DNA of 46,733 bases, taken from assembly GCA_019694595.1 (NCBI GenBank), contig JAIBBQ010000027.1, forward strand, positions 1 to 46,733. The letters run 5' to 3'. The notes under the pieces were generated by a model. The model was not told where the DNA came from and did not search any database. It saw only the letters and a program-made list of their open reading frames with translations. The translations under genes were made by a program, and so were the position numbers. This document shows, in pieces, positions 8,585 through 43,420 of this stretch. The stretch is from Myxococcaceae bacterium (lineage in GTDB: Bacteria > Myxococcota > Myxococcia > Myxococcales > Myxococcaceae). The number at the start of each line of letters is the position of its first letter. Position 1 is the first letter of the stretch.

Positions 8585-11326
8585 ATGACGAAGTCCAAGA
8601 CCACGCGCTGGGTGTACGGGCTCGACGAGCTCTCGAAGGTGGAGCGCCGCGTCCGCACCTGGGACGCCGTCCGCGGGCTCCTCGGCGGCAAGGGCGCCAA
8701 CCTCGCGGAGATGACGCGGCTCGGGCTCCCGGTGCCGCCGGGCTTCATCATCACCGCCGAGGCGTGCGTCGAGTACCTCCACCGCGGCCGTGCGCCCCGG
8801 ACGCTCGATGCCGAAGTGAAGACCGCGCTCGCCACGCTGGAAGCGCGCACCGGCAAGCGCCTGGGCGACCCGGCGTCGCCGCTGCTCCTGTCCTGCCGCT
8901 CGGGCGCCAAGTTCTCCATGCCCGGCATGATGGACACCGTCCTCAACATCGGGCTCACCCCCGAGGTCACCCGCGCCCTGGCCGCGTCCACCGGCGACGC
9001 CCGCTTCGCCTGGGACTCCGCCCGCCGCCTGGTGCAGATGTTCGCCGGCGTGGTGCTGGGCGTGCCGGAAGAGCCCTTCGAGGAGGTGCTCGCCCAGGCG
9101 CGCAAGGAGCGCCAGGTGAAGAACGACGCCGACCTCCCCGCGCAGGACCTGGAAGCCATCACCGCGCGGTTCCGGGCGCTGGTGCTCGAGCACGCCAAGC
9201 GGCCGTTCCCCGACGACCCGCACGAGCAGCTGCAGCTCGCCATCGAGGCCGTCTTCCGCTCGTGGAAGGGCAAGCGCGCGCAGGACTACCGCAAGGCCGC
9301 CGGCATCAGCGACGACCTCGGCACCGCGGTGAACATCATCACCATGGTCTTCGGCAACCTGGGCGACGGTTCCGCGACCGGCGTCGCCACCACCCGCAAC
9401 GTCTCCGACGGCGGCCCTTCGCTCGAAGGCGACTACCTGCTGAACGCCCAGGGCGAAGACGTGGTGGCCGGCACGCGCGAGACGCGGCCCATCGAGGCGC
9501 TGGCGAACGACATGCCCGCCGTCGCGGCGCAGCTGAAGAAGTACGCCACCACGCTCGAGCGCCACTTCCGCGACGTGCAGGACGTGGAGTTCACCGTCGA
9601 GCGCGGCACGCTGTGGATGCTGCAGACCCGCGACGCCAAGCGCACCGCGCGCGCGGCGGTCCGCATCGCGGTGAGCCTGGCCAAGGAGAAGCGCATCAGC
9701 CGCGAGGAAGCCGTGCAGCGGGTGAAGCCCGAGCACGTCGACTTCTACCTCCACCCCCAGTTCGACCCCCAGGCGGTGAAGCAGGCGAAGGCCCAGGGGC
9801 GGCTGGTGGCCACCGGGCTCAACGTGTCACCCGGGGCCGCGACCGGCGTGCTGGCCTTCGACGCCGACACCGCGGAGCGTCTCGCGAAGCAGAACAAGGC
9901 GGTGGTGATGATCCGCGCCGAGACCAAGCCCGACGACGTGCACGGGCTGCTCGCCGCCAAGGGCGTCATCACCAGTCGCGGCGGCCGCACCAGCCACGCG
10001 GCGCTGGTGGCCCGGCAGTTCGGCAAGCCGGCGGTGGTGGGCGCGATGGCGCTGGAAGTCGACGCCGTGAAGCGCATCGCCACCATCGCCCGCAGCGAGC
10101 GGGTGCTGAAGGAAGGCGACGAGGTCTCGCTCGACGGCACCACCGGGGAGATCTACCTGGGCCAGCTCCCCACCCGGCAGCCGGAGCTCGACGACCCGTA
10201 CCTGCTCGAGCTGCTGCGCTGGGCCGACGGTTTCAAGCGCCTCGCGGTCATGGCCAACGCCGACTACCCGCGCGACGCCGAGCGCGCGCGACAGCTGGGC
10301 GCCCAGGGCATCGGGCTGTGCCGCACCGAGCACATGTTCTTCGAGACCGAGCGGCTCCCGCTGGTGCAGCAGCTCATCCTCGCCAGCGACCCCGCGGTGC
10401 GCAGCGGTCTGCTCGAGAAGCTGCTGCCGCTGCAGCGCGAGGACTTCGCCGGGCTCTTCCGCACCATGGCGGGGCTGCCGGTCACCATCCGGCTCATCGA
10501 CCCGCCGCTGCACGAGTTCCTGCCCACGCAGGAGACGCTGGTGCGCCAGGTGGCCGAGCTCGAGACCCGCGCCCGGCTGGGCGACGGCGACGCCGGAGCG
10601 CTCGAGAAGGAGCTCGCCGAGAAGCAGCGGCTGCTCACCGCGGTCGAAGGCCTGCACGAGCAGAACCCGATGCTGGGCCTGCGCGGCGTGCGGCTCGGCA
10701 TTCACCTGCCGGAGCTGGTCGCGATGCAGGTACGGGCCATCTTCGAGGCCGCGTGCGCGGTGCAGAAGGAAGGGCTGCGCGTGCTGCCCAAGGTGATGAT
10801 TCCCCTCATCGCCCACCGCAACGAGCTCCAGGTCGAGCAGACCATGCTCGAGGCGGTCGCCAAGCAGGTGATGGCCGAGCAGAAGCAGAAGGTGAAGTAC
10901 CTCTTCGGCACGATGATCGAGATTCCCCGGGCGGCGCTCACCGCCGATCAGATCGCCGAGTACGCGCAGTTCTTCAGCTTCGGCACCAACGACCTGACCC
11001 AGACGACGTTCGGCATCTCGCGGGACGACGCGGAGACCGGCTTCCTCGCCGAGTACCTGAAGAAGGGAATCCTCAGCGAGAACCCCTTCGCCACCCTCGA
11101 CGAGCACGGCGTGGGGGCGCTCATGCACACCGCGGTGACGCTCGGGCGCAAGACGCGGCCCGGGCTCAACGTCGGCATCTGCGGCGAGCACGGCGGAGAC
11201 CCCAAGAGCATCGCGCTCTGCCACCGCCTCGGGCTCGACTCGGTGTCCTGCAGCCCGTTCCGGATTCCCATCGCGCGCCTGGCCGCCGCCCACGCCGCCC
11301 TGGCGGCGCGCCCGAAGCGCCGCTGA
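8585..11326 (+). CDS. ppdK: Pyruvate, phosphate dikinase
   Basis: This 913-residue enzyme interconverts pyruvate + ATP + Pi and phosphoenolpyruvate + AMP + PPi, a cytosolic step for gluconeogenesis or PPi-linked glycolysis. The N-terminal ATP-grasp domain is seen in LLGGKGANLAEMTRLGLPVP and SGAKFSMPGMMDTVLN. The swivelling phospho-His domain contains GGRTSHAALVARQFGKP with His471. The C-terminal TIM barrel has GLCRTEHMFF and the catalytic Cys866 in GICGEHGGDPKS. Arg replaces the usual Met in the GGMTSHA motif; the His itself is kept. The start follows an AGGTGA ribosome site. It is slightly longer than the usual 870-900 residues. It lies 51 nt after the cytochrome gene and converges on the kinase gene with only 4 nt between stop codons. 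Confidence 0.95.
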   Translation: MTKSKTTRWVYGLDELSKVERRVRTWDAVRGLLGGKGANLAEMTRLGLPVPPGFIITAEACVEYLHRGRAPRTLDAEVKTALATLEARTGKRLGDPASPLLLSCRSGAKFSMPGMMDTVLNIGLTPEVTRALAASTGDARFAWDSARRLVQMFAGVVLGVPEEPFEEVLAQARKERQVKNDADLPAQDLEAITARFRALVLEHAKRPFPDDPHEQLQLAIEAVFRSWKGKRAQDYRKAAGISDDLGTAVNIITMVFGNLGDGSATGVATTRNVSDGGPSLEGDYLLNAQGEDVVAGTRETRPIEALANDMPAVAAQLKKYATTLERHFRDVQDVEFTVERGTLWMLQTRDAKRTARAAVRIAVSLAKEKRISREEAVQRVKPEHVDFYLHPQFDPQAVKQAKAQGRLVATGLNVSPGAATGVLAFDADTAERLAKQNKAVVMIRAETKPDDVHGLLAAKGVITSRGGRTSHAALVARQFGKPAVVGAMALEVDAVKRIATIARSERVLKEGDEVSLDGTTGEIYLGQLPTRQPELDDPYLLELLRWADGFKRLAVMANADYPRDAERARQLGAQGIGLCRTEHMFFETERLPLVQQLILASDPAVRSGLLEKLLPLQREDFAGLFRTMAGLPVTIRLIDPPLHEFLPTQETLVRQVAELETRARLGDGDAGALEKELAEKQRLLTAVEGLHEQNPMLGLRGVRLGIHLPELVAMQVRAIFEAACAVQKEGLRVLPKVMIPLIAHRNELQVEQTMLEAVAKQVMAEQKQKVKYLFGTMIEIPRAALTADQIAEYAQFFSFGTNDLTQTTFGISRDDAETGFLAEYLKKGILSENPFATLDEHGVGALMHTAVTLGRKTRPGLNVGICGEHGGDPKSIALCHRLGLDSVSCSPFRIPIARLAAAHAALAARPKRR

Positions 11327-11330
11327 GCGC

Positions 11331-12482
11331 CTACGCGGTCCGGTGGTGCGTGGGCAGCAGCAAGCGGAAGGTGGCGCCGCCGCCTTCCCGGTCGTCGACC
11401 TCCACGCTGCCACCGTGGGCCTGCGCCACCAGGCGGACCAGGTGCAGCCCGAGGCCGTGTCCGCGCCGCGCGTTCTTCTTGAGCAGCGCCACGGAGCCGA
11501 ACTTCTCGAAGAGGTTGTCCTTGAGGTCGTCGGGCACGCCGTCGCCGCGGTCGGCCACCGAGACCACCACGCGCCCGCCGGCCGAGAGCACCTCGACGTC
11601 GATGGTGCCCTGGGTGTGCCGCACGGCGTTCGCCAGGAGGTTCTCCAGCGCGCGCCGGACGAGCGTGGGGTCGACCTCGGCGGCGATCGCGCTCGAGATC
11701 TCGAAGCGAATGTCGACGCCCTTCTCGTGCGCAGCGAGGCGCACCATCTCCACCGCGCCGAGCGTGAGCCCGAGGAGGTCGGTCTCCTCGCAGCGCAGCG
11801 GGAGCCGGTTGGCTTCCAGCAAGCGGATCTGCAGCAGGTCGCTGGTGGCGTCCATCACCTGGTTGGCCGAGCGCAGCCCGAGGTTCACCAGCTCGCGCTG
11901 TTCTGGTTCCAGGACACAGTCGAGTTCGATGGACTGCAGCGCCAGCCGCACCGCGACGAGCGGGTTGCGCAGGTCGTGCACCACCAGCGCGGTGAGGTCG
12001 TCACGCAGCTCGACCAGCTCGCGCAGCGCCCGCACCTGCGCCCGGATGACCCGCTGCTGCCGCACCACCAGCGCGAAGTGGTTCACCCGCAGCGACAGCT
12101 CCCGCAGGTCGAAGGGCTTCACCAGGTAGTCGTCGGCGCCGGCCTCGAGCCCCTTCCAGCGGTTCTCCGAGTCGTCGAGCGCCGTCAGCATCACGATGGC
12201 CAGCGAGCCAGGCGCCGATTGGCGGCGCAGGGTCCGGCAGACCTCGAGCCCCGACTGTCCGGGCATCATGATGTCGAGCAGCACCACGTCGAAGGCCGAG
12301 CGCCGCGCCAGCTCCAGCGCCTGGATCGCCGAGCCCGCGGTGGTGACGTCGCACGTCTTCCGCAGTGCCCGGCTCACCAGCTCCTGGAGGTCGACCTCGT
12401 CGTCCACCACCAGCACGCGCGGGCGCTCGGAGTGCTCCGGCTCGTCGTCGGGCGGGCGAAGCACTTCGGCGGCAAGGGTCAT
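11331..12482 (-). CDS. Response-regulator/histidine-kinase fusion (REC-HisKA-HATPase), cytosolic
   Basis: This is a 383-residue soluble two-component protein. An N-terminal receiver (about residues 22-140) has the acid pocket VVDDE, phospho-acceptor Asp70 in LLDIMMPG and the late Lys in YLVKPF. A coiled linker leads to a HisKA domain with His169 in VVHDLRNPLVAVR. The HATPase domain is complete: N box LENLLANAVRH, D box DRGDGVPDD and a final GHGLGLHLVR. There is no membrane segment. REC-HK proteins of this order usually take a phosphate from another kinase and set the activity of their own kinase core, as in single-protein phosphorelays. The start follows GAGGA at about 7 nt. No partner is beside it. 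Confidence 0.9.
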   Translation of the reverse strand: MTLAAEVLRPPDDEPEHSERPRVLVVDDEVDLQELVSRALRKTCDVTTAGSAIQALELARRSAFDVVLLDIMMPGQSGLEVCRTLRRQSAPGSLAIVMLTALDDSENRWKGLEAGADDYLVKPFDLRELSLRVNHFALVVRQQRVIRAQVRALRELVELRDDLTALVVHDLRNPLVAVRLALQSIELDCVLEPEQRELVNLGLRSANQVMDATSDLLQIRLLEANRLPLRCEETDLLGLTLGAVEMVRLAAHEKGVDIRFEISSAIAAEVDPTLVRRALENLLANAVRHTQGTIDVEVLSAGGRVVVSVADRGDGVPDDLKDNLFEKFGSVALLKKNARRGHGLGLHLVRLVAQAHGGSVEVDDREGGGATFRLLLPTHHRTA

Positions 12483-12730
12483 GGGGCGTCCTCGAGGTGG
12501 CCTGCTCGGAGCACGGATATGCAGGACATGCGCCCCGCGAAGAGGTGCGGCGATGTACCGGCGTGGACGACCTCCACCCTCATGGTGACGGTGGCGGCTG
12601 CTCGGTGTTTCGCGGGTCTGCGCGATCGCCCGGTGGCCAGCGCGCGGCCGGCTCGGGCAGAGGTCGCGTCACGCGTGAAATCGGCCGGTGTGCTGCGACC
12701 CGCCCAGGGGCCCGAAGACCTGGCGCAGGC

Positions 12731-13132
12731 TCAGGCGACCTCGCCCGGCGTCATGGGGCCGGAGCTCGACAGGAGCCCGAGGATGCGCACCACGTCGTCG
12801 CGCCGACCGAGCGCCGTGTAGTGCTTGAGCAGCTGCTGCAGGTGCGGCGTGGCGTCGGGCATGAGGCCCAGGGCCACCAGGTTCACCGCGACGAGCTCGC
12901 GGGCGGCGGTGTGCTTCGGGTGCAGCTTGAGCGCCTGCTTGGCGCTCGCCACCGCCTTGAGCTGGAAGCCGTGGCCGAGGTGGCACTCCGCGATGCGCAG
13001 ACAGGTCCACGCCGCGGCCTCGCGGTCGCCATCGCGCTCCTGCAGCTGGGCGAGCTTCGCGAGGAGCGCGAGGTCCTCGGGCGCGGCGCGCAGCGCCTCC
13101 AGCACGTCGTCGTAGGGCTTGCGGACGGTCAC
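12731..13132 (-). CDS. Small TPR protein
   Basis: This is a 133-residue cytosolic protein of three to four tetratricopeptide-type helix pairs, for example LALLAKLAQLQERDGDREAA, AVASAKQALKLHPKHTAA and DATPHLQQLLKHYTALGRRD. I chose the GTG at 13132 as start because it follows the stop of the upstream gene by 8 nt and begins the TPR pattern (VTVRKPYDDVLEALRA). The open frame continues far upstream but overlaps the neighbouring gene in another frame. It is probably translationally coupled to the 348-residue protein upstream and may be its partner. The function is unknown. Confidence 0.6.
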   Translation of the reverse strand: MTVRKPYDDVLEALRAAPEDLALLAKLAQLQERDGDREAAAWTCLRIAECHLGHGFQLKAVASAKQALKLHPKHTAARELVAVNLVALGLMPDATPHLQQLLKHYTALGRRDDVVRILGLLSSSGPMTPGEVA

Positions 13133-40537: not shown

Positions 40538-42187
40538 GTGAACGTCACCTGTGACAAGTGTCAGAAGCGCTACGCCATCGCCGACGAGAAGGTGCGGGGG
40601 AAGTCGGTCAAGATCCGCTGCAAGCAGTGCCAGAACCTGATCTCCGTGCAGGGCCCGTCGGCCCAGGCCGTGGACACCTCGGGCGCCCCGGCCGGCCCTT
40701 CCCCCTGGGAAGAGGAGAGCACCCGGGCCATGCCGTCGCTCGACATGTCGGCCGCCTGGTACGCCATGGTCAAGGGCACGCAGATCGGCCCGCTCGACCT
40801 GGTGGCGCTGGAGCAGAAGGTGAAGGCGGGTGAGCTGACCCTGCGCACCTACCTCTGGAAGCAGGGCATGGCCGACTGGAAGCGCGCCAGCGACGTGCCC
40901 GAGGTGAGCCCGGTCTTCGCGGGCGTCGCGGTGGCCCCCGGCGCGGCGCCCCGGCCCCCGTCGAAGGCCTCGGCGGCGGTGCAGCGCGACGTCGCGGTGG
41001 CCAACGAGATGCCGTCGCCGGAGATCACCAACCGCCAGGCGCCCGCGCAGGGCGGCAACGGCAACGGCAACGGCCACGGCCACGCCGAGGTCTCGGCGGA
41101 GCCCACCGACGCCGCCGGGGCGCAGTTCGACGACCAGGCGACCCAGGCCGTCATCCAGTCGCCGCTCAACGCCGCCAGCGGCGGGCTGGGCGACCTCTTC
41201 AACGACGCCCCGGCCACCGACCCTCAGCCCGACGCCGCCGCCAGCACCGGGGACACCGACGCCAGCGGGCCCGACGCCACCGCGAACGACGGCGCCTCGG
41301 CGGCGCCGGCCGACCCCTTCGCGGCCCTGGGCGAAGCCGACCCGAGCCTGGCGCCCCCTCCCGGCGAGGCGACCAAGTTCTTCATCGCCCAGGCGGGCGT
41401 CAACAAGCGCAACCCGCCCTGGAAGATCGCGCTCTTCGTGCTCGGCGGCCTCGGGCTGCCGGTGGGCATCCTCTTCCTGCTGTCCACCCTGCACATCGTG
41501 CCGCTCAACGTCACCCGCACCGACGAGAACGGCCAGGAAGTGCAGCAGTCGTTCTTCTCGGCCGAAGGCATCAGCGGCCTCAAGGACATCTTGAGCGGAG
41601 AAGAGAAGCGCCGGCAGGCCGCCGCCGCGGAGCGCAAGAAGCGCCAGCAGGAAGAGCAGGCCAAGCGCCCGATGATCGCCGGCAACACCGGCGGCGCCAA
41701 CACCGGCACCGGCAGCGCGGGCACCGCGACCAACCCGAGCAACGCCGACCTCTTCGGCGGCGGCACCAAGACGCCTGGCCTCGACGACTTCTACAAGGAG
41801 AACGCTGGCAAGGGCGGCGACAAGATCCCCAAGGATCGCCGGGCCAACGAAGGCGGCTCCAAGCCCGAGGTCGTGGTCTCCGCCAAGTGGTCGGAGGCCG
41901 CGCAGCGCACCGTGAACGACAAGATCAAGTCGTTCCAGGCGTGCATCGAGGAAGAGCTGCGCAAGAACCCCAACCTCAAGGTGGGCAAGGTCATCGTCAC
42001 CGCGAACGTCGTCGGCTCGGGCGCGGTGTCCAGCGCCAGCATCTCGCCGGAGAAGTACAACACCAGCTCCTGGGGCGAGTGCATGAAGAAGGCGGCCAAG
42101 CGGGTCACCTTCCCCAGCCTGGACAGCCCCGACGACACCACGGCGGTCGAGATCCCGATCACCGTCGGGGTTGCATTGGACAACTGA
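40538..42187 (+). CDS. GltJ/AgmX-like protein: zinc ribbon, GYF domain, membrane segment, TonB-like C-terminus
   Basis: This is a 549-residue protein from GTG 40538. The N-terminal zinc ribbon has Cys5/Cys8 and Cys28/Cys31 around YAIADEKVRGKSVKIR. A GYF-type domain lies at about residues 73-121 (WYAMVKGTQIGPLDL, YLWKQGMADWKRA). After a disordered Ala/Pro stretch, one membrane segment lies near 296-316 (KIALFVLGGLGLPVGILFLL). A Lys/Gln-rich periplasmic linker leads to a C-terminal AgmX/PglI-type TonB-like domain (about 448-549). In Myxococcus, GltJ uses this layout to carry the cytoplasmic gliding switch through the envelope. This copy is shorter and lacks other gliding genes nearby, so it is a GltJ-like paralogue rather than GltJ itself. 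Confidence 0.8.
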   Translation: MNVTCDKCQKRYAIADEKVRGKSVKIRCKQCQNLISVQGPSAQAVDTSGAPAGPSPWEEESTRAMPSLDMSAAWYAMVKGTQIGPLDLVALEQKVKAGELTLRTYLWKQGMADWKRASDVPEVSPVFAGVAVAPGAAPRPPSKASAAVQRDVAVANEMPSPEITNRQAPAQGGNGNGNGHGHAEVSAEPTDAAGAQFDDQATQAVIQSPLNAASGGLGDLFNDAPATDPQPDAAASTGDTDASGPDATANDGASAAPADPFAALGEADPSLAPPPGEATKFFIAQAGVNKRNPPWKIALFVLGGLGLPVGILFLLSTLHIVPLNVTRTDENGQEVQQSFFSAEGISGLKDILSGEEKRRQAAAAERKKRQQEEQAKRPMIAGNTGGANTGTGSAGTATNPSNADLFGGGTKTPGLDDFYKENAGKGGDKIPKDRRANEGGSKPEVVVSAKWSEAAQRTVNDKIKSFQACIEEELRKNPNLKVGKVIVTANVVGSGAVSSASISPEKYNTSSWGECMKKAAKRVTFPSLDSPDDTTAVEIPITVGVALDN

Positions 42188-42206: not shown

Positions 42207-42470
42207 ATGTACCTGGGCGAGGTGATCGGCACCGTCGTCGCCACCAAGAAGGTGGCGGGCCTCGAAGGCGCGCGCCTGCTCGTGGTGCAGCCGCTCGACC
42301 ACCACAAGAAGCCGTCGGGCCCTCCGGAGGTCGCGGTGGACCGCGTGTCCGCGAGCCCCAAGTCGCTCGTCTACCTGGTGGGCAGCCGCGAAGCGGCGCT
42401 GGCCTGCGACCCGTGGTTCGTGCCGGTGGACAGCGCCATCGTCGGCCTGATCGACGAGGTCGACGCGTGA
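42207..42470 (+). CDS. Bacterial microcompartment vertex protein (EutN/CcmL family), copy 1
   Basis: This is an 87-residue BMC-P protein. It shows the family pattern MYLGEVIGTVVATKKV, LEGARLLVVQPLD, then EVAVDRV and VPVDSAIVGLIDEVD at the end. Such proteins form pentamers that cap the twelve vertices of a protein-shelled organelle. The GAG-type loop after VAVD is replaced by SASPKS, and an insertion-like DHHKKPSGPP lies before it. The stop overlaps the start of a second copy by four bases (GTGA). No hexameric shell gene is beside it. Confidence 0.88.
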   Translation: MYLGEVIGTVVATKKVAGLEGARLLVVQPLDHHKKPSGPPEVAVDRVSASPKSLVYLVGSREAALACDPWFVPVDSAIVGLIDEVDA

Positions 42471-42745
42471 ACCTCTGCAAGGTGCTGGGCACGGTGGTGG
42501 CGAGCGAGAAGCACCCCGCCTTCCACGCCCGCAAGCTGCTCGTGGTGCAGCCGCTCGACGAGAAGCAGGCGCCGATGGGCAAGAGCTTCCTCGCGGTCGA
42601 CCACACCTCGGGCGCCGGCAAGGGCGACGTGGTGCTGGTGCTGCGCGAAGGCACCGGCGTGCGGCAGATTCTCCAGGACAAGACGCTGCCCATTCGCTCG
42701 CTGGTGGTGGGCGTGGTGGACAAGGTCCAGCTGGGTCCGGCCTAG
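42467..42745 (+). CDS. Bacterial microcompartment vertex protein (EutN/CcmL family), copy 2
   Basis: This is a 92-residue BMC-P protein from GTG 42467, in a GTGA overlap with copy 1. NLCKVLGTVVASEK, ARKLLVVQPLDEKQ, FLAVDHTSGAGKGDVVLVL (with the GAG loop kept) and RSLVVGVVDKVQL match the family. It is closer to the consensus than copy 1. The tight spacing, with the aldolase starting 6 nt after the stop, shows a single operon. Two copies may give mixed or alternative vertices. Confidence 0.88.
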   Translation: MNLCKVLGTVVASEKHPAFHARKLLVVQPLDEKQAPMGKSFLAVDHTSGAGKGDVVLVLREGTGVRQILQDKTLPIRSLVVGVVDKVQLGPA

Positions 42746-42751
42746 CGTTCG

Positions 42752-43420
42752 ATGCCTTCCGCGCCCCTGCCCAAGGTCCGCGCCGAGCTGGTGCAGGTGA
42801 GCCGGCGGCTCCACCAGAACGGCTGGGTGGCGAACCACGACGGCAACGTGAGCGTGCGCCTCACCGGCGACCGCTTCCTCATCACCCCCACCGCGGTGTC
42901 CAAGGGCAGCGTCGACGACGGCATGCTCCTGGTGGTGGACGCCGCGGGCAAGGTGCTCGAAGGGCGGCGCAAGCCGTTCGGCGAGCTCGACCTGCACCTC
43001 GCCATCTACCGCGGGCGGCCCGAGGTCGACGCCGTGGTGCACGCGCACCCGCCGTACGCCACCGCGCTCGGGCTCACGGGCCAGCAGCTCTCGCCCATCG
43101 CGCTGCCCGAGATGGTGGTGTCGCTGGGCAACACGGTGCCCACCCTGCCCCGCGCGATGCCCAAGGACGCGGCGCAGAACGCGGCGCTGGAGAAGGCCGC
43201 AGGCCTGTACGACGCGGCGCTGCTCCAGGGGAACGGCGTCTTCTCGTGGGGCCCGTCGCTCGAGCTCGCGCTGCTGCGCCACGAGCTGGTCGAGCACTGC
43301 GCCAAGATTCTCCACCTGGCGAAGGCGTTCGGCCCGGTGCCGCCGCTCGGCACCGCCGAGGAACAGAAGCTGCTCGAGGCGCGGGCCAAGGCCGGCCTCG
43401 GCCCCAAGCCCCGGAAGTGA
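42752..43420 (+). CDS. Class II aldolase/adducin-family protein (fuculose-phosphate-aldolase-like)
   Basis: This is a 222-residue cytosolic enzyme. HDGNVSVRL is the substrate loop, with SKGSVDDGMLLV after it; FGELDLHLAIY carries the catalytic Glu78; AVVHAHPPYATAL gives zinc ligands His97 and His99. The third ligand, His in the HHG motif of fuculose-1-phosphate aldolase, is Asn161 here (LLQGNGVFSWG). Family members split sugar phosphates such as fuculose- or rhamnulose-1-phosphate to lactaldehyde and DHAP. Association with vertex proteins recalls sugar-degrading microcompartments of planctomycetes and some myxobacteria, where a class II aldolase supplies lactaldehyde to the organelle. The missing His makes zinc binding or activity uncertain. 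Confidence 0.8.
   Translation: MPSAPLPKVRAELVQVSRRLHQNGWVANHDGNVSVRLTGDRFLITPTAVSKGSVDDGMLLVVDAAGKVLEGRRKPFGELDLHLAIYRGRPEVDAVVHAHPPYATALGLTGQQLSPIALPEMVVSLGNTVPTLPRAMPKDAAQNAALEKAAGLYDAALLQGNGVFSWGPSLELALLRHELVEHCAKILHLAKAFGPVPPLGTAEEQKLLEARAKAGLGPKPRK

What the first reader, a model, noticed from the sequence alone, without database searches (positions are those of the whole stretch)
42207..43420. Two microcompartment vertex proteins and an aldolase with no hexameric shell gene in view
Copies 1 and 2 of EutN/CcmL overlap by GTGA, and the aldolase follows 6 nt later, so they form one operon. Normal microcompartment loci also carry several BMC-H/BMC-T genes and an aldehyde dehydrogenase; none is seen within the 46.7 kb. 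Either the shell is encoded elsewhere (a satellite locus), or the pentamers have been re-used without a shell around an aldolase.
Basis: partly seen in the sequence, partly recalled or inferred. Interest (0 to 1): 0.62.

Follow-up and report, generated by a model that had tools for sequence, protein, structure and literature searches.

The report
Outlying gene block of myxobacterial microcompartment
Two corner (vertex) proteins and an aldolase-like enzyme sit apart from the rest of a bacterial protein organelle, whose shell genes lie elsewhere in the same genome; this split arrangement was already described for the Haliangium ochraceum type of microcompartment, so the finding is largely ordinary, with two side observations about its enzymes that look new.

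Summary
In detail: window 42207-43420 holds two BMC-P (EutN/CcmL) genes overlapping by GTGA, then a class II aldolase-family gene. The "missing" shell is on another contig (C62) of the same genome: double BMC-T, BMC-H, a third BMC-P, an EutE/PduP-type aldehyde dehydrogenase and a second BMC-T; three of these have Haliangium ochraceum (HO) shell proteins as closest natural solved relatives. In 195 Myxococcota genomes, all 73 with BMC-P also have BMC-domain genes, 63 have exactly three BMC-P, and the three form separate ancient clades. So the pair is neither a duplicate nor shell-less pentamers: it is the satellite locus of a type I HO microcompartment, as stated by Sutter et al. 2021 (PMC8217296). 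Additions made here: (i) an N-terminally tagged deoxyribose-phosphate aldolase (DeoC) lies within 10 kb of the satellite aldolase in 24 of 61 genomes, always on the same strand, supporting a deoxyribose-phosphate metabolosome; (ii) the class II enzyme has Asn for the third metal-binding His in all copies examined from the window's family, other active-site residues being invariant; (iii) DeoC of BMC-less myxobacteria keeps remnants of the tag. New member of a known kind; low-to-moderate interest.

The parts
42207..42470 (+). BMC-P vertex protein 1 (EutN/CcmL fold, 87 aa)
   Evidence: PF03319 85.3 bits; PDB BMC-P matches 4i7a, 2hd3, HO 5v74; own clade of the BMC-P tree with satellite orthologues
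42467..42745 (+). BMC-P vertex protein 2 (EutN/CcmL fold, 92 aa, GTG start, overlaps protein 1 by GTGA)
   Evidence: PF03319 84.2 bits; PDB BMC-P matches; separate clade of the tree
42752..43420 (+). class II aldolase/epimerase-family enzyme (222 aa); Glu78, His97, His99 kept, third metal ligand is Asn161
   Evidence: PF00596 149 bits; AlphaFold model pLDDT 93.9, best solved match E. coli FucA Z 28.9 over 206 residues; residue counts
40538..42187 (+). upstream zinc-ribbon/GYF-domain protein, 19 nt before the first BMC-P; conserved neighbour, not thought to be part of the organelle
   Evidence: Pfam PF13717, PF14237; homologues upstream of the satellite in many related loci

Best explanation
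The three genes are the satellite locus of a type I Haliangium ochraceum (HO) bacterial microcompartment. Shown: the rest of the shell (double BMC-T, BMC-H, third BMC-P, single BMC-T) and an EutE/PduP-family acylating aldehyde dehydrogenase lie on contig C62 of the same genome; the two vertex genes here are the other two members of an ancient BMC-P triplet. Inferred: the two pentamers are built into the vertices of that shell. Inferred: cargo is delivered by N-terminal encapsulation helices on the AldDH and on a deoxyribose-phosphate aldolase (DeoC, contig C132); [quoted passage not shown] The satellite class II aldolase-family enzyme would act on a related sugar phosphate feeding the same aldehyde step, but its reaction is not known and its metal site is altered. 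My confidence is 0.95 for 'satellite of an HO-type shell', about 0.55 for the deoxyribose-phosphate chemistry and about 0.3 for the class II enzyme being a working aldolase.
For: Whole-genome searches: PF00936 only on C62, PF03319 on C62 (one) and in the window (two). C62 gene order is BMC-T, BMC-H, BMC-P, small ORF, AldDH, BMC-T; closest natural PDB matches are HO-5816 (E 3e-76), HO-5815 (E 3e-44) and the HO vertex protein of 5v74 (E 5e-34). Survey: 73/195 genomes with BMC-P, 63 with exactly three, all 73 with BMC domains. Tree: three BMC-P clades, each holding members from the single-locus lineage f11. [quoted passage not shown] DeoC: TIGR00126 equivalog, 255 bits against cut-off 117, with an N-terminal helix-like extension; within 10 kb and on the same strand as the satellite aldolase in 24 of 61 genomes, 16 within 1 kb. 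In f11 one locus (L093) holds PduL, AldDH, a PduS-like protein, TIM, RpiB, DeoC and the class II aldolase with shell genes.
Against: In this genome DeoC is on a third contig (C132), so its link to the organelle rests on relatives and on the tag. The tag is judged by sequence only; its hydrophobic moment is not exceptional against shuffles. 13 BMC-negative genomes also align in that N-terminal region. No PduL is found in the genome, so CoA recycling is unexplained. The class II enzyme lacks the C-terminal helix that some relatives have and lacks one metal ligand.
Confidence: 0.93

Rival explanations
1. The pentamers have been re-used without a shell, for instance as a scaffold around the aldolase.
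For: No BMC-H/BMC-T gene on the contig; pentamers can form alone (general knowledge of BMC-P crystal structures).
Against: Shell genes are present on C62, and none of 195 Myxococcota genomes has BMC-P without BMC-domain genes.
Confidence: 0.02
2. The pair is a recent duplicate of the main-locus vertex gene.
For: Same protein family; the main locus has its own BMC-P.
Against: Window BMC-P 1 and the main-locus BMC-P are only about 38% identical; the tree has three old clades shared across many families.
Confidence: 0.01
3. The class II enzyme is a pseudo-enzyme or structural partner of the two pentamers rather than a catalyst.
For: Third metal ligand His replaced by Asn in 52 of 81 copies; no encapsulation helix in this family; gene nearly always next to the pentamer genes.
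Against: Glu78, His97, His99, Asn32, Lys51, Glu120, Arg176, Glu178 and Glu181 are invariant in 80 to 81 sequences, which fits catalysis.
Confidence: 0.25
4. The organelle degrades 5-deoxyribose as in the DHAP shunt: the class II enzyme is a 5-deoxyribulose-1-phosphate aldolase giving DHAP and acetaldehyde, which the AldDH uses.
For: The Bacillus thuringiensis aldolase 6btd/6btg is among the closest solved relatives; the DHAP shunt yields acetaldehyde (PMC10986504).
Against: No kinase or isomerase of that pathway was seen beside the satellite; FucA and other members match as well; the metal site differs.
Confidence: 0.15

Closest known systems
HO-type bacterial microcompartment, type I with satellite locus (Sutter et al. 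2021, PMC8217296)
   Same: Main locus with BMC-T, BMC-H, BMC-P and AldDH; satellite of two BMC-P plus an aldolase; BMC-P triplet; DeoC with an EP-like extension elsewhere in the genome.
   Different: No BMC-domain gene outside the main locus was found in this genome. The altered metal ligand of the satellite aldolase and the frequent DeoC-satellite linkage are not mentioned in the passages read.
SPU (sugar phosphate utilisation) microcompartments
   Same: DeoC plus an AldDH; in lineage f11 a single locus carries DeoC, RpiB, TIM, PduL and the same vertex and aldolase orthologues.
   Different: In the window's genome the genes are split over several contigs; RpiB is on C56 and PduL is not found.
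L-fuculose-1-phosphate aldolase family (E. coli FucA)
   Same: Fold (Z 28.9, 206 residues, rmsd 1.8, 28% identity); equivalents of Glu73, His92 and His94 kept.
   Different: Equivalent of FucA His155 is Asn161; no NCBIfam equivalog cut-off is reached.

Membership tests
HO-type BMC, type I satellite locus | two BMC-P genes with an aldolase, apart from the main locus | tested here: met
   definition from PMC8217296
HO-type BMC, type I satellite locus | main locus in the same genome with BMC-H, BMC-T, BMC-P and AldDH | tested here: met
   C62:
HO-type BMC, type I satellite locus | BMC-P triplet of three distinct clades | tested here: met
   (own tree; the published clade assignment was not compared)
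HO-type BMC, type I satellite locus | AldDH phylogenetically in the HO group | not tested
   only family membership (PRK15398)
SPU-type BMC | DeoC (PF01791) and RpiB (PF02502) encoded with the shell genes | tested here: not met
   both present in the genome but on other contigs
L-fuculose-1-phosphate aldolase (class II) | three histidine metal ligands | tested here: not met
   His97 and His99 kept, third is Asn161
L-fuculose-1-phosphate aldolase (class II) | aldol cleavage of fuculose-1-phosphate | not testable with these tools
   needs an enzyme assay
PF00596 class II aldolase/adducin superfamily | score above the curated cut-off, and the fold | tested here: met
   149 bits against 22.2; fold

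The most novel reading that the evidence does not exclude
The HO microcompartment of myxobacteria is a deoxyribose-phosphate metabolosome that shares ancestry with a single SPU-like locus, and its satellite 'aldolase' is a new catalytic variant of the class II family with a two-His/one-Asn metal site serving a second sugar-phosphate substrate of the same organelle.
Probability: 0.3. Interest if true: 0.5.

Novelty: new member of a known kind. Interest (0 to 1): 0.28.

Why it matters
HO shells are a main structural and engineering model of microcompartments, yet PMC8217296 calls their function enigmatic. The repeated side-by-side placement of DeoC with the satellite in distant Myxococcota lineages is a concrete pointer to the native substrate, and the conserved His-to-Asn change gives one enzyme to assay. 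The bare finding, vertex genes away from the shell genes, is already explained.

Tried and rejected
Shell-less reuse of pentamers and simple duplication were tested and rejected. PduL was sought in the genome and not found. A C-terminal encapsulation helix was sought on the window aldolase and is absent. NCBIfam gave no equivalog name for the aldolase. Paper searches for Hoch_4425 and for the FucA His155 ligand found nothing in the library, so the identity of the FucA metal ligands rests on general knowledge plus the alignments. The original HO shell papers (Lassila 2014, Sutter 2017) were not read here. My recollection that H. ochraceum itself carries Hoch_4425/4426 as the pair is a memory, not a test.

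Full report
What is in the window. Codon-position GC (third position 0.95-0.97) fits genuine genes. The window is one entire contig (C47) of a 7.28-Mb, 394-contig genome rated 99% complete and 0.3% contaminated.

Where the shell is. A search of the same genome finds BMC-domain genes only on C62 and a third BMC-P there. Read in detail (L008 = C62:9000-28900), C62 carries BMC-T (L008:9530-10168), BMC-H (10206-10511), BMC-P (10533-10820), a short ORF, AldDH (11011-12423) and BMC-T (12432-12980), all on one strand. PDB comparison gives Haliangium ochraceum shell proteins at the top for the first three: HO-5816 E 3e-76, HO BMC-H 5djb E 3e-44 behind only its engineered tandem, HO vertex protein of 5v74 E 5e-34. 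The second BMC-T is nearer PduT-type trimers, with 5dih also matched. AldDH is of the EutE/PduP family over its full length, N-terminal helix included. From contig coordinates the two loci must be at least about 22 kb apart even if the contigs were neighbours.

Conservation. Among 195 Myxococcota genomes, 73 have BMC-P and 63 of these have exactly three copies. All 73 also have BMC-domain genes; three more genomes have a single weak BMC-domain hit and no BMC-P. In 52 genomes whose satellite was fetched, 48 show BMC-P, BMC-P, aldolase in that order on one strand (counted from the printed table). In 80 loci of named public genomes, titled as myxobacteria, deltaproteobacteria, proteobacteria or just bacterium, 70 show two BMC-P within 900 nt upstream of the aldolase. 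A maximum-likelihood tree of 144 BMC-P resolves three groups: window protein 1 with satellite relatives, window protein 2 with satellite relatives, and the main-locus protein; each group also has members from family f11, in which the genes sit in a single locus. The columns are few (93) and inner forks are often weak, but the three groups are clear.

Prior knowledge. [quoted passage not shown] PMC4207490 defines satellite loci. The finding is therefore an instance of a described arrangement.

What this work adds on function. The genome's DeoC (C132:13997-14887) is a clear deoxyribose-phosphate aldolase (TIGR00126, 255 bits) with about 75 extra N-terminal residues: a helix-like stretch and a linker with a C-x3-C-x2-C-x5-C pattern. 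A phylum search and the aldolase places show DeoC on the same contig within 10 kb of the satellite aldolase, same strand, in 24 of 61 genomes, and within 1 kb in 16, ten of them outside f11; random placement would give well under 1% (inference). Coverage of the N-terminal extension goes with BMC presence (odds ratio 14, Fisher p 2e-12 over the listed rows; odds ratio 98 within the window's family), though related genomes are not independent and only listed rows were used. In f11 one locus (L093) combines PduL, AldDH, a PduS-like protein, BMC-T, BMC-P, TIM, RpiB, DeoC and the class II aldolase. Whether f11 is what the catalogue calls HO type II or an SPU subtype was not settled here.

The class II enzyme. 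The AlphaFold2 model is confident (pLDDT 93.9) and matches FucA-type aldolases. Alignment to E. coli FucA places Glu78, His97 and His99 on Glu73, His92 and His94, but Asn161 on His155 (ligand numbering from general knowledge of FucA). Asn is found in 52 of 81 aligned copies, including every copy from the window's family among those examined, and His in 29; the f11 copies read NHG or the like. All other putative active-site residues checked are essentially invariant. The C-terminal amphipathic tail found in f11 and several other lineages is missing in the window's family. I read this as a working enzyme with a modified metal site, but a structural role cannot be excluded.

Remnants. BMC-negative genomes of the window's family have a DeoC without the Cys-rich linker, and several still have a helix-like N-terminus (L205-L214). 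This fits loss of the organelle with decay of the tag, but was not tested further.

Verdict. Observation confirmed; satellite-locus reading correct; shell-less reading rejected; arrangement already known. Shown: gene content, synteny, orthology, the substitution. Inferred: co-assembly, cargo loading, chemistry.

Noticed in passing
42752-43420 (residue 161 of the protein) and loci L101-L180: Third metal-binding His of the class II aldolase is Asn (motif GNG for NHG) in 52 of 81 copies and in all copies examined from the window's family, with the rest of the site invariant.
   Followed up: partly
L100:1252-2145 (G000:C132); L181-L200: DeoC of BMC-bearing myxobacteria has an N-terminal helix-like stretch and a Cys-rich linker (C-x3-C-x2-C-x5-C here), which might bind metal or an Fe-S cluster.
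   Followed up: partly
L205-L214: DeoC of myxobacteria without BMC genes keeps a helix-like N-terminus but not the Cys-rich linker, as if the organelle had been lost and its targeting tag is decaying.
   Followed up: partly
L093 (G006:C3:165000-176500): Single locus in family f11 joins PduL, AldDH, PduS-like protein, TIM with an EP-like N-terminus, RpiB, DeoC, class II aldolase and three BMC-P: a link between HO and SPU types.
   Followed up: partly
40538-42187: Zinc-ribbon/GYF-domain protein directly upstream of the satellite is a conserved neighbour in at least 20 related loci.
   Followed up: partly
genomes G096, G098, G011: Single weak BMC-domain hits without any BMC-P, possibly remnants of a lost microcompartment.
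   Followed up: no
L008:10820-11014: Short ORF (about 65 aa) between the main-locus BMC-P and AldDH; conservation not checked.
   Followed up: no
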